Made by a program: the position numbers and the translations under genes. DNA of 64,000 bases from the NCBI RefSeq assembly GCF_900129505.1, contig NZ_LT670818.1:6047001-6111000 (forward strand). Reading direction: 5' to 3'. Positions 5,497 through 31,501 of the stretch are shown in pieces. Every line of letters starts with the position of its first letter. Positions within the stretch are counted from its first letter, which is position 1. Source of the DNA: Bradyrhizobium erythrophlei (GTDB lineage: Bacteria; Pseudomonadota; Alphaproteobacteria; Rhizobiales; Xanthobacteraceae). The notes under the pieces are model-generated. The model was not told where the DNA came from. It worked only from the letters and a program-made list of their open reading frames with translations, and ran no database searches.

Positions 5497-6483
5497 TTGC
5501 ATATTCTGGTACTGGGCGCCGCCGGCATGGTCGGCCGCAAACTCACTGAACGGCTGTTGCGCGACGGGCGTCTTGGCAAGAGCGACATTACCCGCATGAC
5601 GCTGCAGGACGTGGTGGCGCCGGCGCAGCCCGCCAATTCAGGTTTTCCGGTCGACACCGTGACCTGCGATTTTGCAGTTGCCGGCGCCGCCGAAAAGCTG
5701 GTGGCCGACCGTCCTGACGTGATTTTCCACCTCGCGGCGATCGTGTCCGGCGAGGCCGAGCTCGATTTCGACAAGGGCTATCGCATCAACCTCGACGGCA
5801 CGCGGATGCTGCTGGATGCGATCCGGCTGATCGGAAACGGCTACAAGCCCCGCGTGGTGTTCACGTCGTCGATCGCGGTGTTCGGCGCGCCGTTCCCGGA
5901 CAAGATCGGCGACGAGTTCTTCAACACCCCGCTGTTGAGCTACGGCACCCAGAAGGCGATCGACGAACTGCTGCTGGCCGATTACACCCGCCGCGGCTTC
6001 ATGGACGGCATCGGCATCCGCCTGCCGACCATCTGCATCCGTCCGGGCCTGCCGAACAAGGCCGCGTCCGGCTTCTTTTCCAACATCCTGCGTGAGCCGC
6101 TCGCGGGTAAGGAGGCGATCCTGCCGGTCTCCGAGGACGTCCGCCACTGGCATGCCACGCCGCGCTCGGCCGTTGGTTTCCTGTTGCATGCCGCGACACT
6201 GGACTCAGGCGTCGTCGGCCCGCGCCGCAATCTCACCATGCCCGGCCTGTCCGCGACCGTCGGCGAACAGATCGCCGCGCTGAAGCGGGTGGCGGGCGAT
6301 AAGGTCGCTGCCCGCATCAAGCGCGAGCCGGATCCGTTCATTGTCGGCATCGTCGGCGGCTGGCCGCGTGATTTCGAGCCGAAACGGGCGCTGCAACTCG
6401 GCTTCACCACGGCCGAAAAGACCTTCGACGACATCATCCGGATTCACGTCGAGGACGAACTTGGCGGCAAGTTCGTGGCCTGA
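5497..6483 (+). CDS. NAD-dependent epimerase/dehydratase-type SDR, DenD-like
   Basis: A 328-residue extended SDR. The Rossmann glycine motif GAAGMVG is at residues 7-13 and the catalytic YGTQK (Tyr-x3-Lys) is present. The sequence is most like D-erythronate 4-dehydrogenase (DenD), which oxidises a sugar acid with NAD, by recognition. The start is TTG at 5497: AAGGAG lies at 5484-5489 with good spacing and the protein begins directly with the beta-strand MHILVLGAA. It precedes a KDG kinase and a KDPG aldolase by only 16 bp, so it probably oxidises the imported sugar or sugar acid. Exact substrate is uncertain. Confidence 0.85.
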   Translation: MHILVLGAAGMVGRKLTERLLRDGRLGKSDITRMTLQDVVAPAQPANSGFPVDTVTCDFAVAGAAEKLVADRPDVIFHLAAIVSGEAELDFDKGYRINLDGTRMLLDAIRLIGNGYKPRVVFTSSIAVFGAPFPDKIGDEFFNTPLLSYGTQKAIDELLLADYTRRGFMDGIGIRLPTICIRPGLPNKAASGFFSNILREPLAGKEAILPVSEDVRHWHATPRSAVGFLLHAATLDSGVVGPRRNLTMPGLSATVGEQIAALKRVAGDKVAARIKREPDPFIVGIVGGWPRDFEPKRALQLGFTTAEKTFDDIIRIHVEDELGGKFVA

Positions 6484-8139: not shown

Positions 8140-9309
8140 ATGACAGCCAGCATCGTCGGATGGGCGCATACACCATTCGGCAAACTCGATATCGAAACCG
8201 TGGAAAGCCTGGTCGTCAAGGTCGCCAACGAGGCGCTCGCCGACGCCGGCATTTCCGCGGGCGATGTCGACGAGATCGTGCTCGGGCATTTCAATGCCGG
8301 CTTCTCGCCGCAGGATTTTACGGCCTCCCTGGTGCTGCAGGCCGATCCGGCGTTGCGGTTCAAGCCGGCCACAAGGGTCGAGAATGCCTGCGCCACCGGC
8401 TCGGCGGCCGTGCATCAGGGCATCCGCGCCATTGCCGCCGGTGCCGCAAAAATCGTCCTGGTGGTTGGCGTCGAGCAGATGACGCGGACTCCTGGCCCCG
8501 AGATTGGCAAGAATTTGTTGAAGGCGTCCTATCTGCCGGAGGACGGCGACACCCCCGGCGGCTTTGCCGGCGTGTTCGGCAAGATCGCGCAGGCCTATTT
8601 CCAGAAATATGGCGACCAGTCCGATGCGCTGGCGATGATCGCCGCCAAGAACCACAAGAACGGCGTCGCCAATCCCTACGCGCAGATGCGCAAGGATTAT
8701 GGTTATGAATTCTGCCGCTCCGAGAGCGAGAAGAACCCATTCGTGGCGGGCCCGCTGAAGCGCACGGACTGCTCACTGGTCTCCGATGGCGCAGCCGCGC
8801 TGGTCCTGACCGATGCCGAAACGGCAAAGACCATGGGCAAGGCGGTTAATATCCGCGCCACCGCCCATGCCCAGGATTTCCTGCCGATGTCCAAGCGCGA
8901 CATCCTGCAGTTCGAAGGCTGCACCGTGGCCTGGCAGCGCGCGCTGCAGTCGGCCGGTGTTACGCTCTCCGACCTGTCCTTTGTCGAAACCCATGACTGC
9001 TTCACCGTCGCCGAACTGATCGAATACGAGGCGATGGGCCTGACGCCGCGCGGGCAGGGCGCGCGCGCGATTCTGGAAGGCTGGACCCAGAAGGACGGCA
9101 GGCTGCCGATCAATCCCTCCGGCGGATTGAAGGCGAAGGGCCACCCGATCGGCGCCACCGGCGTGTCCATGCATGTGATGACCGCGATGCAGCTCTTGAA
9201 CCAGGCCCCCGAGGGCATGCAGATCAAGGACGCGAAACTCGCGGGCATCTTCAACATGGGCGGCGCGGCGGTCGCCAATTACGTCTCGCTGCTGGAGCCG
9301 GCGAAGTAA
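8140..9309 (+). CDS. Thiolase-family protein (SCP-x type acetyl-CoA acetyltransferase)
   Basis: A 389-residue thiolase of the SCP2/lipid-transfer type. The nucleophile Cys84 lies in ENACATGSAA, the second catalytic region is ETHDCF, and the C-terminal glycine-rich motif GGLKAKGHPIGATG carries the catalytic His. All residues for acyl-CoA thiolysis or condensation are present. CAGGGAGAG precedes the ATG. It heads a same-strand run with a CoA-transferase, an acyl-CoA dehydrogenase, a cysteine-less thiolase and a DUF35 protein, so it probably performs the thiolytic step of an unknown acyl-CoA degradation. Substrate chain unknown. Confidence 0.92.
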   Translation: MTASIVGWAHTPFGKLDIETVESLVVKVANEALADAGISAGDVDEIVLGHFNAGFSPQDFTASLVLQADPALRFKPATRVENACATGSAAVHQGIRAIAAGAAKIVLVVGVEQMTRTPGPEIGKNLLKASYLPEDGDTPGGFAGVFGKIAQAYFQKYGDQSDALAMIAAKNHKNGVANPYAQMRKDYGYEFCRSESEKNPFVAGPLKRTDCSLVSDGAAALVLTDAETAKTMGKAVNIRATAHAQDFLPMSKRDILQFEGCTVAWQRALQSAGVTLSDLSFVETHDCFTVAELIEYEAMGLTPRGQGARAILEGWTQKDGRLPINPSGGLKAKGHPIGATGVSMHVMTAMQLLNQAPEGMQIKDAKLAGIFNMGGAAVANYVSLLEPAK

Positions 9310-9662: not shown

Positions 9663-10874
9663 ATGGGACCACTAGAGGGCATCAAGGTCGTCGACATGAC
9701 GACCGTGCTGATGGGGCCCTATGCCACCCAGATGCTCGGCGACTACGGCGCCGACATCATCAAGATCGAGTCGCTCGAGGGCGACGTCACCCGCCTGATC
9801 GGCCCCACGCGCCATCCCGGCATGGGCCCGGTATTCCTCAACACCAACCGCAGCAAACGCTCGATCTGCCTCGATTTGAAAAAGCCGGCCGGGCGCGAGG
9901 CGGTATTGCGGCTGATCGCCTCGGCTGACGTGCTGGTCTACAACGTGCGGCCGCAGGCGATGGCGCGGCTGCAGCTCGGTTACGACGTGGTCGCAAAAAT
10001 CAATCCGCGGCTGATCTATGCCGGCGTGTTCGGTTTCGGCCGGGACGGCCCTTACGCCGCAAAACCCGCCTATGACGATCTGATCCAGGGCGCGACCGCG
10101 TTGCCGGCGCTGATGGCGCAGACCAGCGACGGCATTCCGCGCTATGTCCCGAACGCGCTGGTCGATCGCATCGTCGGCCTCACGGCGGTCGGCGCGATCT
10201 GCGCCAGCCTGGTGCATCGCGACCGCACCGGGCGCGGCCAGCGCCTGGATATTCCGATGTTCGAGACCATGGCCGGCTTTGTCATGGGCGACCACATGGG
10301 CGGACTGACCTACGAGCCGCCGCTCGACAAGGGCGGCTATGCGCGGCATTTGTCACGCGACCGGCGGCCCTACAAGACATCCGACGGCTATATTTGCGTG
10401 ATCGTCTACAACGACAAGCAGTGGGAAAATTTCTTCGAGGCCACCGGCCGTGACGACCTGCGCCGCGATCCCCGGTTTGCGACCTTTGCCGGGCGCGCCG
10501 TCAATATCGACATGGTCTACGCGGAACTGGCTCGCAACTTCGAGACGCGTACCACCGCCGAGTGGACCGAACTGCTCGACAACGCCGACGTGCCCGTAAT
10601 GCCGATGCACGATCTCGAAAGCATGCTGCAGGACCCGCATCTGGTCGCGACCGATTACTTTCCGGTGGTCGATCATCCGACCGAAGGCAGGATCCGCAAT
10701 ATGAAGGTGTCCGCGACCTGGTCGGAGACCACGGCGGGGCCGTCGCGGCTGGCGCCGCGCCTCAACGAGCACGGCGCGGAAATTCTGCGCGAGGCGGGAT
10801 TTTCCGCTGACGAGATCGCGACACTGGTGCGCGACGGCGTCACCCGGGCGGCGCCTGACAGCAAGAGGGATTGA
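9663..10874 (+). CDS. CoA-transferase family III (CaiB/BaiF)
   Basis: A 403-residue family III CoA-transferase, which moves CoA between carboxylic acids through an aspartyl-CoA intermediate. The catalytic Asp is probably D168 in PNALVDRIVG; the N-terminal VVDMTTVLMGPYATQMLGDYGADIIKI-type segment is characteristic (its DYGADIIKIE part is at about residues 27-36). Length is standard. The stop overlaps the region just before the acyl-CoA dehydrogenase start (5 bp gap), so the two are probably co-transcribed and act sequentially: activation, then desaturation. Confidence 0.93.
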   Translation: MGPLEGIKVVDMTTVLMGPYATQMLGDYGADIIKIESLEGDVTRLIGPTRHPGMGPVFLNTNRSKRSICLDLKKPAGREAVLRLIASADVLVYNVRPQAMARLQLGYDVVAKINPRLIYAGVFGFGRDGPYAAKPAYDDLIQGATALPALMAQTSDGIPRYVPNALVDRIVGLTAVGAICASLVHRDRTGRGQRLDIPMFETMAGFVMGDHMGGLTYEPPLDKGGYARHLSRDRRPYKTSDGYICVIVYNDKQWENFFEATGRDDLRRDPRFATFAGRAVNIDMVYAELARNFETRTTAEWTELLDNADVPVMPMHDLESMLQDPHLVATDYFPVVDHPTEGRIRNMKVSATWSETTAGPSRLAPRLNEHGAEILREAGFSADEIATLVRDGVTRAAPDSKRD

Positions 10875-10879
10875 GCCCC

Positions 10880-12046
10880 ATGGATTTTGCGCTTTCAGCC
10901 AATCAGGAGTCGATCCGCGACGCGATCGGGAAAATCTGTTCGCGCTTTGACGATGCCTACTGGTTGAAGAAGGACAAGGAGGGCGGCTACCCCGCCGACT
11001 TCCACCGCGCGCTGGCCGATGCCGGCTGGCTCGGCATCTGCATCCCCGAGGAATTCGGCGGTTCTGGTTTGGGCATCACGGACGCCGCGATCATGATGCG
11101 GACCATCGCGGAATCCGGCGCCGGCATGTCCGGCGCCTCCGCCGTGCATATGAATGTGTTCGGACTCAATCCCGTGGTCGTGTTCGGCACCAAGGAACAG
11201 TGCCGGCGCATGCTGCCGCCGATCATTTCCGGCGCGGACAAATCCTGCTTCGCCGTCACCGAGCCGAATACCGGGCTCAACACCACCCAGTTGAAAACCC
11301 GCGCGGTGCGCAACGGCGACAAATATATCGTCAACGGCCAGAAGGTCTGGATTTCCACCGCCCAGGTCGCCAACAAGATCCTGCTGCTGGCACGCACCAC
11401 GCCGCTGGAAGAGGTGAAGACCGCGACCCAGGGCCTGAGCCTGTTCTATACCGACTTCGACAAGAAGCGCGTCGCGGTGCATGAGATCGAGAAGATGGGC
11501 CGCAAGCCCGTCGACTCCAACGAATTGTTCTTCGAGAATTTTGAAATCCCCGTCGAGGATCGCCTCGGGGAAGAGGGGCGCGGTTTCGAATACATCCTGC
11601 ACGGCATGAATCCGGAGCGGATTCTGATCGCGGCGGAAGCGATCGGGCTCGGCAAGATCGCGCTGTCGCGCGCTTCGGCTTACGCGAAGGGCCGCATCGT
11701 CTTCAACCGCCCGATCGGCATGAACCAGGGCATTCAGCATCCGCTGGCGAAGAACTGGATGGAACTGGAAGCGGCCTGGCTGATGGTGCTGTCGGCGGGG
11801 TGGCAATACGATCAGGGCCTGCCCTGCGGGCCCGCCGCCAACGCGGCGAAATATCTGGCCGCGGAAGCGGGTTTTCACGCCTGCGAGCAGGCGGTGATGA
11901 CCCATGGCGGGTTCGGCTACGCCAAGGAATATCATGTCGAGCGATATTTGCGGGAATCCCTGATCCCCCGCATCGCCCCGATCAGCCCGCAGCTTATTCT
12001 CAGTTTCATTGCCGAGAAGGTGCTGGGCCTGCCGAAGTCGTATTGA
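10880..12046 (+). CDS. Acyl-CoA dehydrogenase, variant without the usual C-terminal catalytic Glu
   Basis: A 388-residue FAD-dependent acyl-CoA dehydrogenase. Features include the N-terminal helical domain, FAVTEPNTG (flavin and substrate loop) near residue 130 and the C-terminal RAS-AKGR region. The usual EGTxEI motif is replaced by RIAPISPQLI, so the common catalytic Glu is absent. A Glu is present in MNPERILIA, the position used by isovaleryl-CoA and long-chain acyl-CoA dehydrogenases. The ATG at 10880 is preferred over a TTG at 10871 that overlaps the previous stop. It lies directly behind the CoA-transferase gene. Substrate is unknown, possibly branched. Confidence 0.92.
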   Translation: MDFALSANQESIRDAIGKICSRFDDAYWLKKDKEGGYPADFHRALADAGWLGICIPEEFGGSGLGITDAAIMMRTIAESGAGMSGASAVHMNVFGLNPVVVFGTKEQCRRMLPPIISGADKSCFAVTEPNTGLNTTQLKTRAVRNGDKYIVNGQKVWISTAQVANKILLLARTTPLEEVKTATQGLSLFYTDFDKKRVAVHEIEKMGRKPVDSNELFFENFEIPVEDRLGEEGRGFEYILHGMNPERILIAAEAIGLGKIALSRASAYAKGRIVFNRPIGMNQGIQHPLAKNWMELEAAWLMVLSAGWQYDQGLPCGPAANAAKYLAAEAGFHACEQAVMTHGGFGYAKEYHVERYLRESLIPRIAPISPQLILSFIAEKVLGLPKSY

Positions 12047-12081
12047 GGGTTTGGCGATGACGGAGGTCGTCACTTTCAATG

Positions 12082-12186
12082 CCGTCATTCCGGGGCGCTG
12101 CGTAGCAGCGAGCCACGATGTGCAATTGCACATCGGGGAATCTCGAGATTCCGGGTCTGGTCCTTCGGACCATCCCGGAATGACGG
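12082..12186. repeat. Dispersed intergenic repeat (CCGTCATTCCGGG family), copy 1
   Basis: Terminal inverted repeats CCGTCATTCCGGG / CCCGGAATGACGG enclose smaller hairpins (GCTGCGTAGCAGC, TGTGCAATTGCACA, TCTCGAGA, GGTCCTTCGGACC). Related copies are at 32480-32595 and, in opposite orientation, at 60010-60093. It lies between two same-strand genes (acyl-CoA dehydrogenase and thiolase-like), so it is carried on the message if the run is one operon. Confidence 0.8.
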
Positions 12187-12208
12187 AATCCAACGAAGTC
12201 GTATTGCC

Positions 12209-13345
12209 ATGAGCTTCATCACCGGCGTCGGCCTCACGTCCTACGGCAAGCATGAGGGCTCATCCTCGCTCGATCTCATGAGCAAGGCCGCCGAGTTCGC
12301 GATAGCGGATGCCGGACTCAAGCGCGCCGATATTGATGGCGTGCTCTGCGGCTATTCGACGGTTTCGCCGCACATCATGCTGGCCACCGTGTTCGCCGAG
12401 CATTTTGGCATTCGCCCTTCCTACGCCCATGCCGTGCAGGTCGGCGGCGCCACGGGTCTCGCCATGACCATGCTGGCGCATCATCTGGTCGAGGCAGGCG
12501 TGGCCCGGCACGTGCTTGTCGTGGCGGGCGAGAACCGGCTGACCGGACAAAGCCGCGATGCCTCGATCCTGGCGCTGGCGCAGGTCGGCCATCCCGACTA
12601 CGAGGTGCCGCTGGGGCCGACGATCCCGGCCTATTACGGTCTGGTCGCCTCGCGCTACATGCATGAATACGGCGTCACGCAGGAAGATCTCGCTGAATTC
12701 GCGGTGCTGATGCGAAGCCATGCGTTTAGTCATCCCGGCGCGCAGTTTCGCGACCCGATCACGGTCGCCGACGTCATGGCGTCGAAGCCGGTGGCGCTGC
12801 CGTTAAAACTTCTGGACTGCTGTCCGGTGTCGGACGGCGGTGCCGCGTTTGTCATCAGCCGCGAACGGACCGGCGCGACCGGCGTGCGCGTCCGCGGTTG
12901 CGCGCAGGCGCACACCCACCAGCATGTCACGGCGGCACCTGCCTTGAGTGAGCTCGGCGCCGAGATCGCCATTGCGCGGGCGAAGCAGGCGGCCGGCGTT
13001 GCGATCTCGGACGTACGCTACGCCGCGGTCTATGACAGCTTTACCATCACGCTGGCGATGTTGCTGGAAGACCTCGGCCTGGCCGGGCGCGGCGAGGCGG
13101 CCGCGCGGGTGCGCGCTGGATATTTCGGCCGCGATGGCGAGATGCCGCTCAATACCCATGGCGGCCTGTTGAGCTACGGCCATTGCGGCGTCGGCGGCGC
13201 CATGGCGCATCTGGTCGAAACCCATCTGCAGATGACCGGACGGGCTGGAAGTCGCCAGGTGCGCGACGCCTCGATCGCGCTGCTGCATGGCGACGGCGGC
13301 GTGTTGTCGTCGCATGTCAGCATGTTTTGGGAGCGGGTGCGATGA
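12209..13345 (+). CDS. Thiolase-like protein lacking the catalytic Cys (possible DUF35-dependent aldolase)
   Basis: A 378-residue thiolase-fold protein. At the nucleophile site the sequence is HAVQVGGATG, so Gly replaces the Cys of the paralogue at 8140. The HDCF motif has become YDSF. The C-terminal glycine loop keeps a His (GGLLSYGHCGVGG). True thiolase chemistry is therefore unlikely. The gene overlaps the following DUF35 gene by 4 nt. Cys-less thiolase-like proteins that bind a DUF35 partner include the steroid side-chain retro-aldolases (Ltp2 with ChsH2), where a Tyr replaces the His; the same change is seen here. Function as an acyl-CoA aldolase is inferred; a structural or binding role is the alternative. 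Confidence 0.85.
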   Translation: MSFITGVGLTSYGKHEGSSSLDLMSKAAEFAIADAGLKRADIDGVLCGYSTVSPHIMLATVFAEHFGIRPSYAHAVQVGGATGLAMTMLAHHLVEAGVARHVLVVAGENRLTGQSRDASILALAQVGHPDYEVPLGPTIPAYYGLVASRYMHEYGVTQEDLAEFAVLMRSHAFSHPGAQFRDPITVADVMASKPVALPLKLLDCCPVSDGGAAFVISRERTGATGVRVRGCAQAHTHQHVTAAPALSELGAEIAIARAKQAAGVAISDVRYAAVYDSFTITLAMLLEDLGLAGRGEAAARVRAGYFGRDGEMPLNTHGGLLSYGHCGVGGAMAHLVETHLQMTGRAGSRQVRDASIALLHGDGGVLSSHVSMFWERVR

Positions 13346-13704
13346 GCGAAAGCAAGCAGACGCCAGCGGACTGGACCACGGGCGCGGAAGCGATCGTCTA
13401 TCAAGCCTGCGAGCCTTGCGGAAATATGCAATATTTCCGCCGCAGCTTCTGCTCTGCCTGCGGCGCGCCGGACCCGGTCGAGAAGCGCGCTAGCGGGGAG
13501 GGCACGGTCTACGCGACCTCGCTGGTCTGCCGCGCCGCCACGCCGGAAACCCGCGCGCATATTCCCTACAATATCGTTCTGGTCGACACGTCGGAAGGCT
13601 TTCGCATGATGGCCCATGGCGACCACGATCTTGCGATCGGCGACAAGGTGACCGCGCGGTTCGTGCCGTTCGCCGGACGCCTCGTTCCCTATTTCGCGAG
13701 ATGA
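13342..13704 (+). CDS. DUF35 (zinc ribbon plus OB-fold) acyl-CoA-associated protein
   Basis: A 120-residue protein with the DUF35 layout. A rubredoxin-like zinc ribbon has four cysteines in two CxxC pairs (CEPC at about residues 30-33 and CSAC at about 43-46). An OB-fold follows, from GTVYATSLV to the C-terminus (VTARFVPF). The start at 13342 overlaps the thiolase-like stop (ATGA), though the frame is open upstream. Such proteins form complexes with thiolase-like or HMG-CoA-synthase-like partners and shuttle or hold acyl-CoA. The tight coupling implies an obligate complex with the upstream product. Confidence 0.9.
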   Translation: MSESKQTPADWTTGAEAIVYQACEPCGNMQYFRRSFCSACGAPDPVEKRASGEGTVYATSLVCRAATPETRAHIPYNIVLVDTSEGFRMMAHGDHDLAIGDKVTARFVPFAGRLVPYFAR

Positions 13705-14838: not shown

Positions 14839-16680
14839 TTAAGGCGCCGTCAGCAAATCCACCTTGGTGTTGGCCACGATCAGCCGTTCGGCCAGCAGCT
14901 GCGCCAGGTTGCGCATGATGCGCTCGCCGACGCGCGGGTGTTTTTCGCGGTAGCGCTCGAACGCGTCGAGCGGGATTTCCAGCGCGGTGGCGGACATGTC
15001 GGCGAGCACGTCGGCGGTGCGGTAGGTTTCCAATAGCGCCATTTCGCCGAACGCCGTTCCGGCCGTCAGGGTCGCCAGCCGCACGCCGTCGGGCAGGCTG
15101 ACATGGACCACCCCGCTGACGAGGAAAAACAGCGATGTCGAGGGATCGCCGGCGGCAACGATCCGCTCGCCCGAGCGATAGCTTCGCATCGCGCCGAGAG
15201 CTGCGATCTCTTCGATTTCGCTGGCCGAAAGCCCCGCCAGCAGCGGCTGTTCAGAAAGCCCGGTGGTCTCGTGGAAGTCGATCGCGCCGCCATGGCGGTA
15301 GACCACCTGGTCTTCGGCCCATTCGATCGCGGTGTCGAGCAGATAGAAGTCGCGCAAATTGGTGAGGCCTTTTGCCTGTTCCTTGATCAGTTTCCAATCT
15401 GCGGAAGAACGCCGGACGCCGGACAGAATCACCGTGACGTTGAACGCCGCCAATTCCTGGAATTCCTCGGCGAGGAGCCGGACGCCGGCGCGCGTCATCG
15501 CCGCGACGCGGCGCAGGTCGAAGATGACAAATTGCGGGCGCGGCTTGGCCGCGAGCTGCCGGGAGATGTAATCGACATTGGAGAAGGTCAGCGGGCCCAC
15601 CAGCTCGATGATGCGCACGGCCTGATGGTGGGTGGCGAGAATGTGCCGCTCATGCGGCCGGCGGCTGCGCCGCGACGGGCTCTTTCCGATATTGTAGTCG
15701 GCGATGATGCTGTTGCGCGCATCGTCGCTGCGGTTGAGCATGTGCAGATCGTAATGCGCCGACAGCGCCTCGCAAACCCCGATGCCGCGCACGCTGTTGC
15801 CGTGGCTGTCGAGCTTCGGCGAGTAGCTGCCGAGCCCGAGCCGCGCCGGCAGCGCCGCCAGAATGCCGCCGCCGACGCCGCTCTTAGCGGGAATGCCGAC
15901 GCGATAGATCCATTCGCCGGCGTAGTCGTACATGCCCGACGAGGTCATCACCGACAGCGTCCGCGAGATCGCGTAGGGGGTCATCACCTGCTCGCCGGTG
16001 ACAGGATTTTTTCCGCGATTGGCCAGCGTCGCGGCCATCACGGCGATGTCGCGCGCGGTCACCAGGATGGCGCATTGCCGGAAATACACCTCCAGCACTT
16101 TGCTGACGTCCTCTTTGAGGACGCTGTTGGTGCGCAGGAGATAGCCGATGGCGCGGTTGCGGTCGCCGGTCGTGCTCTCGGAAGTAAAGACCGCCTCATC
16201 GACCCCGAGTTCGCGCCCGGCGAAGCGGCCGAGTGCTGAGCGGATATATTCGAAGGCGCCGTCGCCCTTGGCTTCGCGGATCAGCCCGGAGCAGGTGATC
16301 GCGCCGGCGTTGACCATCGGATTGAACGGATGATTGTCGGCATTGAGCCGGATCGAGTTGAAGGGATCGCCCGACGGTTCGACGCCGATCGCGTTTTCCA
16401 CCCGTGCCGCCCCCAGCGTGTCCAGCGCCAGCGCGAACACGAACGGCTTCGACATCGACTGAATCGTGAAGGGGATCCGGCTGTCGCCGACCTCGTAGAC
16501 ATGCCCGTCGAGGGTGGCGAGGCTGATGCCGAAATGATCGGGGTCGGCCTTGCCGAGTTCGGGGATATAGTCGGCGACGTTGCCGCCGGTCTCCGCCGCA
16601 AAATCCGCGTGACAGGCGTCGAGGAACCGCAGCAAGGGCGGTTTCAGGGCGGCCCAGTCCTTTGCGCGCAAATGATTCAT
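14839..16680 (-). CDS. glsA: Glutaminase fused to STAS and cyclic-nucleotide-binding domains
   Basis: A 613-residue fusion. Residues 1-310 are a serine-dependent glutaminase (L-glutamine to glutamate plus ammonia) with the beta-lactamase-like SMSK motif (S75, K78), NPMVNAGAI and the C-terminal KSGVGGGI loop. Residues about 350-460 resemble a STAS domain (IIELVGPLTFSNVDYISR, FVIFDLRRV). Residues about 480-600 are a cNMP-binding domain with the phosphate-binding cassette FGEMALL followed by YRTAD. The longer open frame starts at 16920, but the family N-terminus and spacing favour the ATG at 16680. No DNA-binding helix-turn-helix is evident after the cNMP domain. Control of activity by a nucleotide and by protein partners is inferred. 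Confidence 0.93.
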   Translation of the reverse strand: MNHLRAKDWAALKPPLLRFLDACHADFAAETGGNVADYIPELGKADPDHFGISLATLDGHVYEVGDSRIPFTIQSMSKPFVFALALDTLGAARVENAIGVEPSGDPFNSIRLNADNHPFNPMVNAGAITCSGLIREAKGDGAFEYIRSALGRFAGRELGVDEAVFTSESTTGDRNRAIGYLLRTNSVLKEDVSKVLEVYFRQCAILVTARDIAVMAATLANRGKNPVTGEQVMTPYAISRTLSVMTSSGMYDYAGEWIYRVGIPAKSGVGGGILAALPARLGLGSYSPKLDSHGNSVRGIGVCEALSAHYDLHMLNRSDDARNSIIADYNIGKSPSRRSRRPHERHILATHHQAVRIIELVGPLTFSNVDYISRQLAAKPRPQFVIFDLRRVAAMTRAGVRLLAEEFQELAAFNVTVILSGVRRSSADWKLIKEQAKGLTNLRDFYLLDTAIEWAEDQVVYRHGGAIDFHETTGLSEQPLLAGLSASEIEEIAALGAMRSYRSGERIVAAGDPSTSLFFLVSGVVHVSLPDGVRLATLTAGTAFGEMALLETYRTADVLADMSATALEIPLDAFERYREKHPRVGERIMRNLAQLLAERLIVANTKVDLLTAP

Positions 16681-16762
16681 GTGAGTCCTGCCGTGCGAAA
16701 ATTGTTCGCGCGATCCGACATTACGTTGCATCGGCGCAAGCTGAAACCGGCCTGGTGGCCTT

Positions 16763-16806
16763 TTATCAGGCAGGCTTATCAGGAAGGCTTGACTTGTCAG
16801 GAAGGC
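16763..16806. repeat. Tandem direct repeats upstream of the glutaminase gene
   Basis: Two adjacent 13-bp units, TTATCAGGCAGGC (16763-16775) and TTATCAGGAAGGC (16776-16788), are followed by a related TTGTCAGGAAGGC ending at 16806. They lie 83-126 bp upstream of the minus-strand glutaminase start, inside its presumed promoter and downstream of the biotinyl-protein gene. They could be repeated binding sites or simple slippage products. Confidence 0.6.
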
Positions 16807-16825
16807 TTGGCGCCGGAACGGCGCA

Positions 16826-17047
16826 TCAGGTTTCGATGATCGCGACGAGTTGCCCTTCGGCGACGACGTCGTCGATGCTGACGAGGATCGATTTGAGGGT
16901 TCCGGCAGCGGGAGCGGCAACCGGGATTTCCATCTTCATCGCTTCGACGAAAGCGATGTCGTCGCCATCGCCAATGTGACCGCCGACTTCGGCGGGAAGC
17001 GCGCAGACGCGACCGGCTACCTCGGTCACTACCTTGATATCTGGCAT
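16826..17047 (-). CDS. Stand-alone biotinyl (BCCP-like) carrier protein
   Basis: A 73-residue biotinyl domain and nothing else. The biotinylation motif EAMKME places the acceptor at K38; the flanking VAGRVCALPAEVG and AAGTLKSILV strands complete the hammerhead fold. The ATG at 17047 (with CGGAGTG upstream) is preferred; an in-frame extension to 17101 lacks family similarity. It is divergent from the IclR gene and, beyond it, an acyl-CoA carboxyltransferase, so it probably carries carboxybiotin for that enzyme. No biotin carboxylase gene is in the window. A lipoyl domain is unlikely because of the AMKM core. Confidence 0.92.
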   Translation of the reverse strand: MPDIKVVTEVAGRVCALPAEVGGHIGDGDDIAFVEAMKMEIPVAAPAAGTLKSILVSIDDVVAEGQLVAIIET

Positions 17048-24527: not shown

Positions 24528-24612
24528 AATCCGCCGCGCGTCGAGACCCTTTCCAAACGCCTCAAAGACTGCAAGATGCCGCCAAAACCCGCACCCGGTC
24601 TTGGAGGAACGC

Positions 24613-26109
24613 ATGCGTATAATCGGACATTTTATCGGCGGCCGTGAGGTCAAGGGCACTTCCGGGCGCTTCGCGGACGTCTTCGAGCCGATGACCGGCG
24701 ACGTCCAGGCCCAGGTGGCGCTGGCGACCAAGGCCGAACTTCGCGCCGCGGTCGAGAACGCCAGGGCCGCGCAACCGGAATGGGGCGCCACCAATCCGCA
24801 GCGCCGCGCCCGCGTGATGATGAAGTTCCTCGAACTGGCGCGGCGCGACTACGATAAGCTCGCCGAGCTTCTGGCCCGCGAGCACGGCAAGACCGTTCCC
24901 GACGCCAAGGGCGACATCCAGCGCGGGCTCGAGGTGGTCGAATTCGCCTGCGGCATTCCGCATCTGATGAAGGGCGAATATACCGAGGGAGCCGGTCCCG
25001 GCATCGACATCTATTCGATGCGGCAGCCGCTGGGAGTGGTTGCCGGCATCACGCCGTTCAATTTCCCGGCCATGATCCCGATGTGGAAGTTCGCGCCCGC
25101 GATCGCCTGCGGCAACGCGTTCGTGTTGAAACCGTCGGAGCGCGATCCCGGCGTGCCGATGGCGCTGGCCGCGCTGATGATCGAGGCGGGATTGCCACCA
25201 GGCATCCTCAACGTCGTCAACGGCGACAAGGAAGCGGTCGACGCCATCCTCGACGATCCCGACATCAAGGCCGTCGGCTTCGTCGGCTCCTCGCCGATCG
25301 CGCAATATATCTATGAGCGCGCGGCTGCCACCGGCAAACGCGCGCAGTGTTTCGGCGGCGCCAAGAACCACGCCATCGTGATGCCGGACGCCGACATGGA
25401 CCAGACCGTCGATGCGCTGATCGGCGCGGGCTACGGTTCGGCCGGCGAGCGCTGCATGGCGATCTCGGTCGCCGTCCCCGTCGGCAAGACCACCGCCGAC
25501 CGGCTGATAGAAAAGCTGATCCCGCGGGTCGAGGCGCTCAAGATCGGCACCTCAATCGACCCGTCGGCGGATTACGGTCCGCTGGTGACGAAGGACGCGC
25601 TCAACCGCGTCAGGAACTATGTCGAGATCGGCATCAAGGAAGGGGCAAAACTCGCGGTCGACGGCCGCAGCTTCAAGATGCAGGGCTACGAAAATGGCTT
25701 CTACATGGGCGGCTGCCTGTTCGACAACGTCACCAAGGACATGCGGATCTACAAGGAAGAGATCTTTGGGCCCGTGCTGTCGGTGGTGCGCGCCCACGAC
25801 TACAATGAGGCTCTCGCTCTGCCGTCCGACCACGACTACGGCAACGGCGTTGCGATCTTCACCCGCGACGGCGACGCCGCGCGCGATTTCGCGGCCAAGG
25901 TCAATGTCGGCATGGTCGGCATCAACGTGCCGATCCCGGTGCCGATCGCCTACTACACCTTCGGCGGCTGGAAGAAGTCCGGTTTCGGCGACCTCAACCA
26001 GCATGGGCCGGATTCGATCCGCTTCTACACCAAGACCAAGACGGTGACGGCGCGCTGGCCCTCCGGCGTCAAGGAAGGCGCGGAGTTCTCGATTCCGACG
26101 ATGAATTGA
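24613..26109 (+). CDS. mmsA: Methylmalonate-semialdehyde dehydrogenase (CoA-acylating)
   Basis: A 498-residue aldehyde dehydrogenase that turns (methyl)malonate semialdehyde plus CoA and NAD into propionyl-CoA or acetyl-CoA, the last step of valine degradation. Diagnostic features are [16 protein letters not shown], the [14 protein letters not shown] motif and the nucleophilic Cys in [15 protein letters not shown]. The ATG at 24613 has GGAGGA at 24603-24608; a TTG at 24601 is the alternative. It starts a run in which all four distal valine enzymes follow in order, which strongly supports the assignment. Confidence 0.96.
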
Positions 26110-26123
26110 TCGCGCCGGGTCAG

Positions 26124-27269
26124 ATGCACTTCGCTCTCAATGAGGACCAGATTGCGGTTCGCGAGATGGCGCGGGAGTTTGCCGCGGAAAAGATCGCGCC
26201 GCATGCGGTCCGCTGGGACGAGGAGAAGCATTTCCCGGTCGACGTGATGCGCGAGGCGGCCAGGCTCGGCATCGGCGGCATCTATATACGTGACGATGTC
26301 GGCGGCTCGGCCTTAAGCCGGTTCGATGCCGCGCTGATCTTCGAGGCGCTGGCGCAGGGTTGTCCGACGGTGTCGGCCTTCATCTCGATCCACAACATGG
26401 CCTCGTGGATGATCGACGCCTTCGGCAACGACACCCAGCGTCAGAAATGGCTGCCGAAACTCTGCACCATGGAACTGTTCGCAAGCTATTGCCTGACCGA
26501 GCCCGGCTCCGGATCGGACGCCGCGGCGTTGCGCACCCGCGCGGTGCGCGACGGCGACCATTATGTGCTCAACGGCCAGAAGCAATTCATTTCCGGCGCC
26601 GGCGGCAGCGATCTCTACGTGGTGATGGTGCGCACCGGCGGCGACGGGCCCGGCGGTATTTCCACGCTCGTCGTCGATGGCGAGACGTCGGGGGTCTCGT
26701 TCGGCGCCAATGAGCGCAAGATGGGTTGGAACGCGCAGCCGACCCGTGCGGTGATTTTCGAGAACGCGCGCGTGCCCGTCGCCAACCGGCTCGGCGAGGA
26801 GGGCATCGGCTTCAAGATCGCGATGGCAGGCCTCGACGGCGGCCGCATCAATATCGCGGCCTGTTCGCTCGGCGGTGCACAATCCGCGCTCGACAAGTCG
26901 CTGGCCTACATGAAGGAGCGCAAGGCGTTCGGAAAGCGTCTCGACGAATTCCAGGCGCTGCAGTTCCGCCTTGCCGACATGGCGACCGAGCTCGAAGCGG
27001 CGCGAACCTTCGTATGGCGCGCCGCCGCCGCGCTCGACCGTAAGGATCCGGATGCCACCATGCTGTGCGCGATGGCAAAGCGTTTCGGCACCGATGTCGG
27101 ATTCGAGGTCGCCAACCAGGCGCTGCAGCTGCATGGCGGCTACGGCTACCTCAGCGAATACGGCATCGAAAAGATCGTGCGCGATCTGCGCGTGCACCAG
27201 ATCCTCGAAGGCACCAACGAGATCATGCGCCTGATTGTCTCGCGGAAACTGATCGAGGGCGCGCGATGA
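26124..27269 (+). CDS. Isobutyryl-CoA dehydrogenase-like acyl-CoA dehydrogenase
   Basis: A 381-residue acyl-CoA dehydrogenase. The FAD/substrate loop [13 protein letters not shown] is near residue 130 and the catalytic Glu is in [10 protein letters not shown] near the C-terminus. The sequence resembles ACAD8 (isobutyryl-CoA to methacrylyl-CoA), and its place between mmsA and 3-hydroxyisobutyryl-CoA hydrolase fits valine catabolism. I start it at ATG 26124 (MHFALNEDQ), since an upstream TTG overlaps the mmsA stop. The stop overlaps the next start by 4 nt. Confidence 0.93.
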
Positions 27270-28357
27270 CCGCCCAGGCAGCCGGCGTGGCGGCCGAACC
27301 CGATTTGATCGTACGCCGCGAAGGCGCCGTCGGAATTATCCGGCTCAACCGGCCGAAGACGATCAACGCCATGACCTTCGAGATGTCGGTCGGCATCGAC
27401 AAGGCCCTGGACCAGTTCGAGGTGGATCCGGCGATTGCACTGGTATTGCTGGAGGGCGCCGGAGAACGCGGATTGTGCGCGGGTGGGGACATCCGCGGGC
27501 TGTACGAAAGCTCGCGCGCCGGCGGCGACCTCGGCAAGCGGTTCTGGCGCCAGGAATACATCATGAATGCGCGTATCGCGCATTTTCCGAAGCCGTATGT
27601 TGCCTTCATGGACGGGCTGGTGATGGGCGGCGGTGTCGGGCTGTCCGCGCACGGTAGTCATCGCGTCGTGACCGAAAAGACAAAACTGGCGATGCCCGAA
27701 GTCGGCCTCGGTTTCTTTCCCGATGTCGGCGGCACCTTTCTGTTGTCGCGCTCGCCGGGCGAGATCGGCACCTATTTTGGGCTCACCGGGCAGACCATGA
27801 ACGGCCCGGACGCGATCTATGCCAAATTCGCCGATGCGGTCGTACCATCAGGCAAACTTGCCGCGCTGCGCGAGACGCTGGTCAACCTTCGCGTCGGCGC
27901 GCGCGCCGCCGAGGTGAAAGCCGCGATCGACGGTTTCGCGACCGGCGAGACCGAGGGGCCCGTCGCCGCGCAGCTGGCGACAATCGACCGTTGGTTTGCC
28001 CATGACCGGATGGAAGATATCGTTGCCGACCTCGAGCGGGACGGATCGGATCTCGCGCAATCGACGCTGAAGGCGTTGAACGAGAAATCGCCGCGCGGCA
28101 TGGTGGTCGCATTAAAGCTGCTGCGGCTGGCGCGGCCATCGTCCTCGCTGGAACAATGCCTGGTGCGGGAGTATCGCGCCGCGCTGGAAGTATTCCGCAG
28201 CGACGATTTCCGCGAGGGCGTGAGGGCGGCCGTGATCGACAAGGACCGCAATCCGCGCTGGTCGCCGGCGCGGATCGAGGACGTGACACCGGAGATGGTC
28301 GCGCCTTACCTTGCCGAGATCGGCGCCGATGAACTGGTGTTCGACACAACACAATAG
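27266..28357 (+). CDS. 3-hydroxyisobutyryl-CoA hydrolase (crotonase family)
   Basis: A 363-residue crotonase-family protein, longer than a hydratase and typical of [34 protein letters not shown] and [19 protein letters not shown] hold the oxyanion hole and catalytic acidic residues. It cleaves 3-hydroxyisobutyryl-CoA to the free acid, avoiding reactive methacrylyl-CoA build-up. The start at 27266 overlaps the previous stop (ATGA). An enoyl-CoA hydratase for the preceding hydration step is not in this run; the gene at 22828 could serve. Confidence 0.93.
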
Positions 28358-28382
28358 AAACGGCTGAGTGGAGGGAATTGGC

Positions 28383-29270
28383 ATGGCAAGCATCGCATTC
28401 ATCGGCCTCGGCAATATGGGCGGGCCCATGGCGGCCAATCTGGTCAAGGCCGGCCACAAGGTGATCGCATTCGATCTGGTGGCGACTTCACGCGATCAGG
28501 CCAAAGCCGACGGCGCCGGGATCGCCGACAGCGCGGTCGGCTCGGTGAAAGGCGCCGATATCGTCATCACCATGCTGCCCGCGGGCAGGCATGTGCTGTC
28601 GGTGTGGACCGACGTCATTCCCTCGATGAAGAAGGGTGCCTTGATCATCGATTGCTCCACCATCGACGTCGAGAGCGCCAAACAGGCCCACGCGCTGGCG
28701 GCGAAGCACAACGCGCTCTCGGTCGACGCGCCGGTGTCCGGCGGCACCGGCGGCGCCAAGGGCGCGACGCTCACTTTCATGTGCGGCGGCGAGGACAATG
28801 CGTTCGCGGCGGCAAAGCTGGTGCTGGAGAACATGGGCAAGAAGATCGTGCATTGCGGCGGCGCCGGCGCGGGACAGGCGGCCAAGATCTGCAACAACAT
28901 GATCCTCGGCATTTCCATGATCGCGGTCGGCGAAGCCTTTGCGCTTGCCGAAAAACTGGGACTGTCGCACCAGGCGCTGTTCGACGTCGCCTCGACCTCC
29001 TCTGGGCAATGCTGGTCGCTGACCACCTATTGTCCGGTGCCGGGCCCGGTGCCGACCTCGCCGGCCAATAACGGTTACAAGCCGGGTTTTGCGTCGGCGC
29101 TGATGGTGAAGGATCTCACGCTGGCGCAGGATGCGGCCAATGCGGCTGGGGCGGCGACCCCGCTCGGCAAGCACGCGCAGGAGATCTACAAGGCGTTCGA
29201 CGCCGCCGGCAATGGCGGCGTGGATTTTTCGGGGATCATCCAGCATGTGCGGGGGTTGGCGGGAAAATAG
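28383..29270 (+). CDS. mmsB: 3-hydroxyisobutyrate dehydrogenase
   Basis: A 295-residue beta-hydroxyacid dehydrogenase that oxidises 3-hydroxyisobutyrate to methylmalonate semialdehyde with NAD. Motifs are the N-terminal GLGNMGGPMAANLVKAGH (residues about 7-24), the substrate loop DAPVSGGTGGA and the catalytic Lys in GQAAKICNNM. GGAGGGA precedes the ATG at 28383; a GTG at 28368 is the alternative. With mmsA it closes the valine set. Length and motifs are standard. Confidence 0.96.
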   Translation: MASIAFIGLGNMGGPMAANLVKAGHKVIAFDLVATSRDQAKADGAGIADSAVGSVKGADIVITMLPAGRHVLSVWTDVIPSMKKGALIIDCSTIDVESAKQAHALAAKHNALSVDAPVSGGTGGAKGATLTFMCGGEDNAFAAAKLVLENMGKKIVHCGGAGAGQAAKICNNMILGISMIAVGEAFALAEKLGLSHQALFDVASTSSGQCWSLTTYCPVPGPVPTSPANNGYKPGFASALMVKDLTLAQDAANAAGAATPLGKHAQEIYKAFDAAGNGGVDFSGIIQHVRGLAGK

Positions 29271-29281
29271 CGGGAGAGCCG

Positions 29282-31021
29282 ATGACCACATTCCAGGAAG
29301 CGCGCGCGTTCCTCCTCAAGCATCGCACCGACTACGATGCCGCAGTTAACGGATTCCGCTGGCCGGATCCCGTGCCGTTCAACTGGGCGCTGGACTGGTT
29401 CGACGCGGAGCTGGCGCGCAATGCCGACAGCAAGGACCGTCCCGCCCTGTGGATCGTCGATGCCGGCAGCAGCAAGGAAACAAAACTCTCGTTCACGGCG
29501 CTGTCACGCCGTTCCAACCAGGTCGCAAATTTCCTGCGCGCGCAGGGACTGAAGCGCGGCGATCATCTGTTGCTGCTGCTCGGCAACGTCGTACCGCTGT
29601 GGGAGACCATGCTGGCGGCGATGAAGCTCGGCGTGGTGGTGATCCCCGCCACCACGCTGCTGACGCCGGACGAACTGCGCGACCGGCTCGATCGCGGTCG
29701 CGCCAAAGTGGTGGTGGCGTCGCAGGATCAGGTGACAAAATTCGCTGGCCTCGGCGGCGACCAGCTCATCCGCATCGTCGTCAACGCGCCGTCGAGGCAG
29801 GACGGCTGGCTGGCTTTTGAGCAGGCGGCGGAGTTTCCCGAGAGTTTTGCGCCGGATGGGCCGACAAAAGCCGAAGATCCGATGCTGCTGTATTTCACCT
29901 CGGGCACGACCGCAAAGCCAAAGCTGGTGCGGCATAGCCAGCGCAGCTATCCCGTCGGCGGGCTGTCGACGATGTACTGGCTCGGCTTGCAGCCGGGCGA
30001 TGTCCACCTGAACATTTCCTCGCCGGGCTGGGCCAAGCACGCCTGGAGCTGCTTCTTCGCGCCCTGGAATGCCGGGGCCACCGTGTTCGTGCTCAATCAG
30101 CCGCGCTTCGACGCCAAGGGATTGCTCGCGACCATCGGCCGCTGCGGCGTCACCACACTGTGTGCGCCGCCGACGGTGTGGCGGCTGTTCATCCAGGAGA
30201 AGCTCGCGACCTTCAAGGTCAGCTTGCGCGAGGTCTGCGGCGCCGGCGAGCCGCTCAATCCCGAAGTGATCGACCAGGTGCGCGCGGCCTGGGGGCTGAC
30301 CATCCGCGACGGCTACGGCCAGACCGAAACCACCGCACTCGCCGGCAATTCGCCGGGGCAGAAGGTGAAAGTCGGATCGATGGGCCGGCCGCTGCCGGGC
30401 TATCGCGTAGAGATCACCGACATCGACGGGCATATTGCCAACGAGGGCGAGGTCACGCTGGTGCTCGGCGCCGACCGCCCCGCCGGCCTGATGCAGGGCT
30501 ATCAGGGCGACGACGGAAAACTCAGCGGCGCGGACGGCGCGCTGTATCGCAGCGGCGACGTGGTGTTTTCCGACGAGGATGGCTATTTGACCTTCGTCGG
30601 CCGTTCCGACGACGTCTTTAAATCGTCCGACTACCGGATCAGCCCGTTCGAACTCGAGAGCATTCTGCTGGAGCACGAACAGGTCGCGGAGGCCGCCGTC
30701 GTGCCCAGTCCCGATCCGATCCGCCTTGCCATCCCGAAAGCCTATGTGCTGCTGGTCGCGGGCGCGGAGCGCTCATCCGAGACCGCGCTGTCGATCTTCA
30801 GGCATCTGCACACGCGCCTCGCGCCGTTCAAGCGCATCCGGAAGATCGAACTGGTGACGGAATTGCCGAAGACGATTTCCGGAAAGATCCGCCGCGTGCA
30901 GTTGCGCCGGCTGGAACACGACAATGATCGCGAAGATTCGCTTCGGGGTGCGGAATTTCGCGAAGAGGATTTCCCGGAGCTGCAAAAGATGCGGCATGCG
31001 GGTTCGACGGAGAATGGTTGA
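29282..31021 (+). CDS. Acyl-CoA synthetase (AMP-forming, medium-chain ACSM-like)
   Basis: A 579-residue adenylate-forming ligase. The P-loop motif YFTSGTTAKPKLVRH is at about residue 205, the A5 motif DGYGQTETT is near 340, the A7 region YRSGDVVFSDEDGY is near 425 and the catalytic Lys is in TISGKIRRVQLR near 540. The sequence resembles ACSM/benzoate-type CoA ligases acting on short to medium or aromatic acids. It follows mmsB by 11 bp and is followed immediately by a MaoC gene, so it is part of the same transcript. Substrate is unknown. Confidence 0.94.
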   Translation: MTTFQEARAFLLKHRTDYDAAVNGFRWPDPVPFNWALDWFDAELARNADSKDRPALWIVDAGSSKETKLSFTALSRRSNQVANFLRAQGLKRGDHLLLLLGNVVPLWETMLAAMKLGVVVIPATTLLTPDELRDRLDRGRAKVVVASQDQVTKFAGLGGDQLIRIVVNAPSRQDGWLAFEQAAEFPESFAPDGPTKAEDPMLLYFTSGTTAKPKLVRHSQRSYPVGGLSTMYWLGLQPGDVHLNISSPGWAKHAWSCFFAPWNAGATVFVLNQPRFDAKGLLATIGRCGVTTLCAPPTVWRLFIQEKLATFKVSLREVCGAGEPLNPEVIDQVRAAWGLTIRDGYGQTETTALAGNSPGQKVKVGSMGRPLPGYRVEITDIDGHIANEGEVTLVLGADRPAGLMQGYQGDDGKLSGADGALYRSGDVVFSDEDGYLTFVGRSDDVFKSSDYRISPFELESILLEHEQVAEAAVVPSPDPIRLAIPKAYVLLVAGAERSSETALSIFRHLHTRLAPFKRIRKIELVTELPKTISGKIRRVQLRRLEHDNDREDSLRGAEFREEDFPELQKMRHAGSTENG

Positions 31022-31501
31022 ATGAATGAAGTCTGGAAGAAGCCGCCGGTCTCGCTGGAGACATACCAGGGGATGGTCGGCAAGGAAATCGGTGTGTCCT
31101 CATGGCACCTGATCGATCAGAAGCGGATCAACCTTTATGCCGACGTGATCGAGGATCACCAGTTCATCCATGTCGATCCCGAGCGGGCCAAGCGCGAGAC
31201 TTCATTTGGAACGACCGTGGCGCACGGCTTTCTGACGATGTCGCTGATGAGCATCATGTCGTATGAGGTGATGCCGGTGATCGAGGGCACCACGATGGGC
31301 GTCAATTACGGCTTCGACAAGCTGCGCTTCATCTCGCCGGTGCGTTCGGGCAAGCGCGTCCGCGGCCGCTTTACGCTGGCGGAGGCGAAATTGCGCAAGC
31401 CGGCCGAACTGCTATCGCGCACCAGCGTGACCGTGGAAATCGAGGGCGAGGAAAAGCCCGCTTTGGTCGCCGACTGGATCGGTTTGATTTATTTTGCTTA
31501 A
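31022..31501 (+). CDS. MaoC-family acyl-CoA hydratase
   Basis: A 159-residue single hotdog of the R-hydratase type. The catalytic Asp/His segment is in DVIEDHQFIHVDPERA and VAHGFLTMSL forms the substrate loop. It would add water to an enoyl-CoA. The start directly abuts the stop of the acyl-CoA synthetase (no intervening base). Together with the next SDR it gives a hydratase-dehydrogenase pair like the multifunctional HSD17B4 system split into separate proteins. Confidence 0.92.
   Translation: MNEVWKKPPVSLETYQGMVGKEIGVSSWHLIDQKRINLYADVIEDHQFIHVDPERAKRETSFGTTVAHGFLTMSLMSIMSYEVMPVIEGTTMGVNYGFDKLRFISPVRSGKRVRGRFTLAEAKLRKPAELLSRTSVTVEIEGEEKPALVADWIGLIYFA

What the first reader, a model, noticed from the sequence alone, without database searches (positions are those of the whole stretch)
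12209..13704. Cysteine-less thiolase fused by overlap to a DUF35 gene: candidate acyl-CoA retro-aldolase
Nucleophile Cys to Gly and HDCF to YDSF changes, with a 4-nt overlap with a DUF35 zinc-ribbon/OB gene (seen). In steroid degradation, Cys-less Ltp2-type proteins act with DUF35 ChsH2 as retro-aldolases using Tyr residues (established). Here the neighbours are a true thiolase, a CoA-transferase and an acyl-CoA dehydrogenase, with no steroid-ring genes in view, so the substrate is probably not a steroid. It may be an undescribed acyl-CoA route.
Basis: partly seen in the sequence, partly recalled or inferred. Interest (0 to 1): 0.7.

Follow-up and report, generated by a model that had tools for sequence, protein, structure and literature searches.

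The report
Cysteine-less thiolase with DUF35 partner
Most Bradyrhizobium genomes examined carry a thiolase-like enzyme that has lost its reactive cysteine and gained a conserved tyrosine; it is probably a carbon-carbon-cleaving aldolase of a lineage for which I found no published assay, working on CoA-activated acids that are probably not steroids.

Summary
Window 12209-13345 encodes a 378-aa thiolase-like protein (TLP) with Gly for the nucleophile Cys and YDSF for HDCF; it shares ATGA with a 120-aa zinc-ribbon/OB (DUF35) gene. It is no decaying gene: in 80 close named loci the key residues are invariant, DUF35 follows in 80, and dN/dS is about 0.07. In a motif-blind tree the TLP falls with the Cys-less YD proteins, including the characterised retro-aldolases Sal and Ltp2 (100/100 against Cys thiolases), but in its own clade (100/99). 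All 114 rows with Gly at the nucleophile site have Tyr for the motif His. The aldolase reading is therefore supported, with corrections: only one of the two Ltp2 tyrosines is kept; the Ltp2 acid Tyr344 position holds His325, as in thiolases, and Sal's essential motif Cys is Ser here. A non-steroid precedent exists (ibuprofen IpfDE). Partners suggest a carboxylate activated to its CoA ester (CoA-transferase in Bradyrhizobium, often an ADP-forming ligase elsewhere), then cleaved. Substrate and activity are untested. New variant of a known kind.

The parts
12209..13345 (+). Cys-less thiolase-like protein (TLP), 378 aa; proposed acyl-CoA retro-aldolase, catalytic candidates Tyr275, His325, Ser277
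13342..13704 (+). DUF35 zinc-ribbon/OB partner, 120 aa, C4 zinc motif, ATGA overlap with the TLP
9663..10874 (+). family III (CaiB/BaiF) CoA-transferase, proposed substrate activation; in 79 of 80 close named loci
10871..12046 (+). acyl-CoA dehydrogenase, in 33 of 80 close named loci; accessory
8140..9309 (+). true SCP2-type thiolase (VENACATG, HDCF, GHP), conserved neighbour in Bradyrhizobium and close kin
12070..12200 (+). dispersed palindromic repeat in the gap between the acyl-CoA dehydrogenase and TLP genes; not thought to be part of the function

Best explanation
The TLP-DUF35 pair is most likely a cofactor-free acyl-CoA retro-aldolase. A carboxylic acid is turned into its CoA ester by the adjoining CoA-transferase (in other genera often by an ADP-forming acyl-CoA synthetase or an AMP ligase). 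The beta-hydroxyacyl-CoA, imported as a hydroxy acid or made by dehydrogenation plus hydration, binds in the TLP with DUF35 shaping the substrate cleft, as in Sal. Tyr275 takes the proton from the beta-hydroxyl, the C-alpha/C-beta bond breaks, and the acyl-CoA enolate is protonated, probably by His325 (the thiolase His, in the place of the Ltp2 acid Tyr344), giving acetyl- or propionyl-CoA and an aldehyde or ketone. Shown here: residue pattern, conservation, tree position, gene partnerships. Inferred: reaction, direction, the roles of Tyr275, His325 and DUF35. Unknown: substrate.
For: Motif-blind careful tree of 47 rows picked from 123: Cys-less YD proteins including Sal and Ltp2 split from Cys thiolases with 100/100; TLP clade 100/99. 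Of 124 non-redundant rows, 114 have Gly at the nucleophile column and all 114 have Tyr at 275 (111 YD, 3 YA); of 9 Cys rows 8 have HD, 1 NE. The published bases Sal Tyr302 and Ltp2 Tyr294 align with Tyr275; Ltp2 Tyr344 and Sal Gln352 align with His325. Tyr275, Asp276, Ser277, His317, His325 invariant in 19 of 19 TLP-clade rows and 80 of 80 close loci. DUF35 within 1.5 kb in 18 of 18 TLP-clade and 105 of 107 Cys-less YD rows with a locus. A CoA-activating enzyme in 18 of 24 long TLP-clade loci outside Bradyrhizobium. Hydratase genes next to the pair in Azospirillum, Roseovarius and a Paracoccaceae.
Against: Neither characterised acid is kept: Sal C304S is inactive and this protein has Ser there. 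Only 4 of 18 TLP-clade rows have a hydratase within 1.5 kb and the genes read between 8140 and 13704 in the window include none, so the source of the beta-hydroxyl is not explained. 6 of 24 long loci show no CoA-activating enzyme by my profiles. DUF35 is not a mark of aldolases: it also stands by 2 of 2 Cys-type HDAF rows. Three Cys-less YAPC-type rows fall with the Cys thiolases in the quick tree, so loss of Cys alone does not place a protein. The structure model failed (mean pLDDT 44), so active-site geometry was not checked. My paper searches show no assay of the clade.
Confidence: 0.6

Rival explanations
1. Non-covalent C-C chemistry other than retro-aldol: decarboxylation of a malonyl- or beta-keto-type CoA ester, or aldol/Claisen condensation in the synthetic direction, with Tyr275/His325 handling an enolate.
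For: His325, which in thiolases and ketosynthases assists enolate chemistry (recalled), is kept here but lost in Sal and Ltp2. The Cys-less SLP of Trypanosoma brucei shows weak malonyl-CoA decarboxylation.
Against: Sal, also Cys-less, showed no malonyl-CoA decarboxylase activity. Neighbouring transporters and CoA-activating enzymes look catabolic.
Confidence: 0.18
2. The TLP is an inactive thiolase-fold scaffold that, with DUF35, organises the neighbouring true thiolase, in the style of the archaeal thiolase/HMG-CoA synthase/DUF35 complex.
For: True thiolase next to it in 79 of 80 close loci. DUF35 ties two thiolase-fold enzymes together in the archaeal complex.
Against: The pair occurs without that thiolase in the more distant loci compared. 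Active-site residues are invariant, not drifting as one expects of a dead subunit.
Confidence: 0.1
3. A steroid side-chain aldolase (Ltp2 or Sal ortholog).
For: Same group, same kind of DUF35 partner; OB_ChsH2_C match. One window protein (5497-6483) matches PF01073 3Beta_HSD over its cut-off.
Against: Outside both the Sal and the Ltp2 clades. The PF01073 protein is better explained as D-erythronate dehydrogenase. Sugar-acid, CoA-transferase and valine-type genes around. Several relatives sit with carboxylate-type transporters.
Confidence: 0.05
4. A thiolase that works without a Cys nucleophile.
For: Thiolase fold by sequence and retained His325.
Against: Both thiolase cysteines are gone and the motif His has become Tyr.
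Confidence: 0.03

Closest known systems
Sal (CtSal, PDB 9myr), bile-acid C5 side-chain aldolase with the DUF35 domain of Shy
   Same: Cys-less, Gly at the nucleophile site, YD motif, NTHGG-x-LS-x-G region, DUF35 partner; base Tyr302 = Tyr275
   Different: Sal needs Cys304 (YDCY) and has Gln352; here Ser277 and His325. Separate clade (Sal 94/93). The Shy DUF35 has a C3H1 zinc site; here C4.
Ltp2-ChsH2(DUF35) (TcLtp2, PDB 6ok1), steroid C3 side-chain aldolase
   Same: Cys-less, YD motif, NTHGG, C4-type DUF35 partner; base Tyr294 = Tyr275
   Different: Ltp2 acid Tyr344 is His325 here; YDHF is YDSF; separate clade.
PDB 4u4e, 'Thiolase', the best sequence match in the PDB (192.4 bits)
   Same: YDSF, Gly at the nucleophile site, LSYTHPG
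   Different: NTNGG not NTHGG; in another clade. No paper holding '4U4E' together with 'thiolase' or 'Sphaerobacter' was listed (the source organism is recalled).
IpfDE, ibuprofen retro-aldolase pair of sphingomonads (PMC9195938, passages)
   Same: A thiolase/acyl-transferase gene (ipfD) plus ipfE credited with releasing propionyl-CoA from a non-steroid CoA ester
   Different: Aromatic dihydrodiol substrate made by a dioxygenase. Sequences were not compared here; that IpfE is of the DUF35 type is recalled.
BbsAB benzoylsuccinyl-CoA thiolase, archaeal thiolase/HMGS/DUF35, PhlACB
   Same: Thiolase fold plus DUF35 partner
   Different: Thiolase or acyltransferase chemistry. The archaeal thiolase row keeps the Cys; that BbsB and PhlC do is recalled.

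Membership tests
Cys-less thiolase-fold aldolases with DUF35 partner (broad group) | nucleophile Cys replaced by Gly | tested here: met
   Gly80; 80 of 80 close loci
Cys-less thiolase-fold aldolases with DUF35 partner (broad group) | Tyr in place of the His of HDCF | tested here: met
   Tyr275 aligned with Sal Tyr302 and Ltp2 Tyr294; Tyr in 114 of 114 Gly rows (111 YD, 3 YA), in 0 of 9 Cys rows; rows were collected by likeness to the TLP
Cys-less thiolase-fold aldolases with DUF35 partner (broad group) | falls with Sal and Ltp2, apart from Cys thiolases | tested here: met
   100/100, motif columns left out, 47 rows chosen from 123; 97 SH-aLRT in the 123-row quick tree, where 3 Cys-less YAPC rows and 1 Ser row lie on the thiolase side
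Cys-less thiolase-fold aldolases with DUF35 partner (broad group) | adjacent DUF35 | tested here: met
   not specific, since 2 of 2 Cys-type HDAF rows also have one
Cys-less thiolase-fold aldolases with DUF35 partner (broad group) | retro-aldol activity | not testable with these tools
   no assay
Ltp2 | catalytic pair Tyr294 + Tyr344 | tested here: not met
   first kept (Tyr275); second is His325
Ltp2 | inside the Ltp2 clade | tested here: not met
Sal | catalytic pair Tyr302 + Cys304 (YDCY) | tested here: not met
   Tyr kept, Cys is Ser277; C304S has no detectable activity in Sal
Sal | inside the Sal clade | tested here: not met
SCP2-type thiolase | two catalytic cysteines (CATG, HDCF) | tested here: not met
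   Gly80 and Ser277
PF01796/PF12172 (DUF35, ChsH2-type) | zinc ribbon plus OB fold | tested here: met
   OB_ChsH2_C 41.4 bits over 27.1; zf-ChsH2 22.8 just under 23.2 but C4 ligands intact
IpfDE | sequence kinship to IpfD | not tested
   no IpfD sequence was in hand

The most novel reading that the evidence does not exclude
A third catalytic solution (Tyr-His, no cysteine, no metal) within the Cys-less thiolase group forms a portable 'activate-and-cleave' module: a CoA-activating enzyme plus TLP-DUF35 turns an imported hydroxycarboxylate into acetyl- or propionyl-CoA and a carbonyl compound, a metal-free counterpart of the HMG-CoA and citramalyl-CoA lyases, widespread in Bradyrhizobium and carried on plasmids in other genera.
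Probability: 0.3. Interest if true: 0.7.

Novelty: new variant of a known kind. Interest (0 to 1): 0.5.

Why it matters
Sal and Ltp2 show two residue solutions for turning a thiolase fold into an aldolase, both for steroids. This lineage keeps the thiolase His that both lost and lacks the residue that serves as acid in each, so it tests directly how the fold does aldol chemistry. It is widespread in a large genus of soil and legume symbionts. Its plasmid relatives are annotated 'thiolase family protein', 'thiolase' or 'hypothetical protein', and the thiolase names are probably wrong as to activity. A substrate would open a carboxylate route and a possible biocatalyst.

Tried and rejected
A 'migrating cysteine' idea (motif Cys lost, Cys326 next to His325 taking over) was rejected: several TLP-clade members have Ser at 326 and Ser at 277, so no Cys at either place. 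A complex with the true thiolase as the core function was set aside: the thiolase is absent from the distant loci compared. The acyl-CoA dehydrogenase as a fixed pathway member was set aside: 33 of 80. Remnants of the CoA ligases of sister genera were sought in the first 26 kb of the window at E 1e-3 and not found. The structure prediction from a shallow alignment of close kin failed (mean pLDDT 44) and was not used or searched. A THL profile hits all 24 loci, I think because it finds the TLP itself, and is ignored. Paper searches that might have shown a described member of this clade listed steroid, ibuprofen, structural and unrelated papers; I judged most of them by listing only, and most subscription papers are not held.

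Limits of the counts: homologs were collected by likeness to the TLP, from the window's class and from plasmids, so Cys thiolases are under-sampled (9 Cys rows). 171 homologs plus 7 reference and window rows were cut to 124 at 85% identity; matches under about 250 residues were dropped; one row (NEAF type) was left out of the trees, and the 47-row tree leaves out, by my choice, 76 of 123 rows, among them the YAPC and Ser-HDAF types and row L276, which has the TLP motif letters but falls elsewhere. The Fisher tests treat related rows as independent; in the Cys/Tyr test the NEAF row was left out and the Ser row counted with the HD side. The ligase profile was seeded with five TLP-clade loci: 10 of 18 against 4 of 89 with them (p 9e-7), 5 of 13 against 4 of 89 without (p 0.0015); 2 of 3 YAPC rows, outside these 107, also have the ligase. 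My DUF35 profile missed the DUF35 gene near the Ser-type paralog that one search finds. DUF35 adjacency is 105 of 107 within 1.5 kb on either strand, 90 of 107 on the same strand within about 600 nt. Partner tallies cover whole 17-20-kb loci, either strand, some of one genus, with profiles partly seeded from these loci and no background rate. Gene calls in far loci come from a simple script of mine.

Full report
WHAT IS THERE. The window is bases 6047001-6111000 of a 9.18-Mb one-contig genome; its nearest named relatives are Bradyrhizobium. Window 12209-13345 encodes a 378-aa thiolase-like protein (TLP) and 13342-13704 a 120-aa DUF35 protein; they share ATGA. The TLP has Gly80 where thiolases have the nucleophile Cys, YDSF (275-278) for HDCF, and NTHGG-LLSYGHCG for NPSGG-LKAKGHPIG. 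Upstream are a true SCP2-type thiolase (8140-9309), a family III CoA-transferase (9663-10874) and an acyl-CoA dehydrogenase (10871-12046). Before those lies a sugar-acid cluster (ABC transporter, D-erythronate dehydrogenase, sugar kinase, KDPG/KHG aldolase). Of 40 window ORFs given to Pfam the only steroid-named match is PF01073 on the erythronate dehydrogenase, a short-chain dehydrogenase; this does not exclude steroid genes.

IT IS A REAL, CONSTRAINED GENE PAIR. All 195 genomes of the genus that were searched (a sample) have a homolog at E <= 1e-30; by my count of the listing 179 have a best E of 1e-120 or better and 16 have only distant ones. A capped scan of named genomes kept its best 80 loci, 78 titled Bradyrhizobium and 2 Bradyrhizobiaceae. 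In these the TLP is followed by DUF35 in 80, with ATGA (75) or GTGA (5) at the junction; all 14 active-site positions examined are invariant, the DUF35 C4 zinc motif is present in 80 of 80, and median dN/dS against the window is 0.07 (39 values). In the own genome a family search finds five DUF35 genes, and by coordinates each lies beside a thiolase-fold gene.

WHERE IT BELONGS. I aligned 124 non-redundant homologs: window TLP and thiolase, five PDB rows, and rows from the window's class and from plasmids. Nucleophile and motif go together: 111 Gly with YD, 3 Gly with YA, 8 Cys with HD, 1 Ser with HD, 1 Cys with NE; no Gly with HD. Trees were built with the motif columns removed. The quick tree of 123 rows splits the 111 YD rows from 12 others (97, SH-aLRT only); the 12 are the HD rows and, against a simple rule, the three Cys-less YAPC rows. 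The careful tree of 47 rows that I picked, without YAPC and Ser types, separates Cys thiolases from Cys-less YD proteins with 100/100; within the latter the TLP clade (16 rows, 100/99), its YDCF sister clade (100/100), Sal (94/93) and Ltp2 (100/98) stand apart. One row, L276, carries the TLP motif letters but falls elsewhere. So the TLP belongs to the group that holds the known aldolases and to neither known family.

CATALYTIC RESIDUES. The Sal paper (PMC12329534; outline, sections 6, 9, 11 and 25 seen) gives Tyr302 and Cys304 for Sal and Tyr294 and Tyr344 for Ltp2; in Sal Y302F abolishes activity and C304A and C304S have none detectable. In my alignment Tyr275 is the shared Tyr; Ltp2 Tyr344, Sal Gln352 and His325 share a column, which agrees with the paper's Tyr344/Gln352 match. 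The TLP clade therefore keeps the base but neither published acid. In 19 of 19 TLP-clade rows Tyr275, Asp276, Ser277, Asn315, His317, His325 and His360 are invariant. Cys326 is not: some rows have Ser. My inference is Tyr275 as base and His325 as acid; His360 is a second candidate. Across the 111 YD rows position 325 is His 88, Gln 10, Tyr 9, Glu 4, and Gln goes with YDD in 7 of 7 such rows, so the acid may have been changed more than once.

GENE PARTNERS. DUF35 lies within 1.5 kb of 18 of 18 TLP-clade rows and 105 of 107 Cys-less YD rows with a locus (90 of 107 by the stricter count); it also stands by 2 of 2 Cys-type HDAF rows and none of 3 HDCF rows. An ADP-forming acyl-CoA synthetase lies within 1.5 kb in 10 of 18 TLP-clade rows against 4 of 89 other YD rows (p 9e-7; p 0.0015 with the five seed loci left out). 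In the 80 close loci the CoA-transferase takes that place: present in 79 and, in the 46 without the dehydrogenase, 3-197 bases before the TLP by alignment ends; the synthetase gave 1 and the AMP ligase 13 long hits in these loci. The sister-genus locus L098 has thiolase, AMP ligase, CoA-transferase, dehydrogenase, TLP, DUF35 and ADP-forming synthetase in a row. In 24 long TLP-clade loci outside Bradyrhizobium, some from one genus, my tally gives a CoA-activating enzyme in 18, a hydratase in 9 and a TctC- or Liv-type transporter in 10, anywhere in 17-20 kb and without a background rate. Eight annotated plasmid loci, of the TLP clade (6) and its sister clade (2), show similar groupings. This fits 'activate a carboxylate, then cleave it'; it does not name the substrate.

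KNOWN OR NEW. The chemistry has precedents: Sal, Ltp2, and ibuprofen IpfDE (PMC9195938, passages seen), described as a retro-aldolase giving propionyl-CoA. DUF35-thiolase gene association has been in print since 2010 (PMC2954200, passages seen). New here, as far as the listed searches reach, is a well-supported clade outside Sal and Ltp2 with a different residue set, widespread in Bradyrhizobium, with its own CoA-activation partners. I file it as a new variant of a known kind. The reaction itself remains inferred.

Noticed in passing
window 12070-12200: Dispersed palindromic repeat with several stems (fold z -6.45) sitting in the operon; a 27-base core occurs 29 times in the genome with up to 2 mismatches, its reversed control 0 times; a longer stricter pattern of its other half occurs once.
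   Followed up: partly
L005 / L089 (own genome, about 7337283-7337615): Another paralog has Ser in place of the nucleophile Cys (ASASG) with HDAF, near a DUF35 gene: a further odd thiolase in the same genome.
   Followed up: no
L004 / L088 (own genome, about 6861699-6862787): Cys-less paralog of a very different type (GNGMT, YAPC) with DUF35 and an ADP-forming acyl-CoA synthetase beside it; in the quick tree it groups with the Cys thiolases.
   Followed up: no
alignment, position 277 against 325: Rows with YDDF or YDDY have Gln at 325 (7 of 7), rows with YDAF His (30 of 30), YDHF Tyr (2 of 2): perhaps an active-site code across the Cys-less group; rows are related.
   Followed up: partly
window 10871-12046: The acyl-CoA dehydrogenase reads IAPIS where the usual YEG glutamate lies, and has Glu in NPERIL, as in isovaleryl-type enzymes (motif places and roles recalled).
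   Followed up: no
window 24601-31501: Valine-type degradation cluster: aldehyde dehydrogenase, acyl-CoA dehydrogenase, ECH_2 (hydroxyisobutyryl-CoA hydrolase-like), hydroxyisobutyrate-type dehydrogenase, AMP ligase, MaoC.
   Followed up: no
window 14839-16920: Glutaminase fused to STAS and cyclic-nucleotide-binding domains.
   Followed up: no
L195 and L196: AtuA-family gene with a small unnamed gene and tripartite tricarboxylate transporter parts near the TLP module in Methylobacterium and Comamonas plasmids.
   Followed up: no
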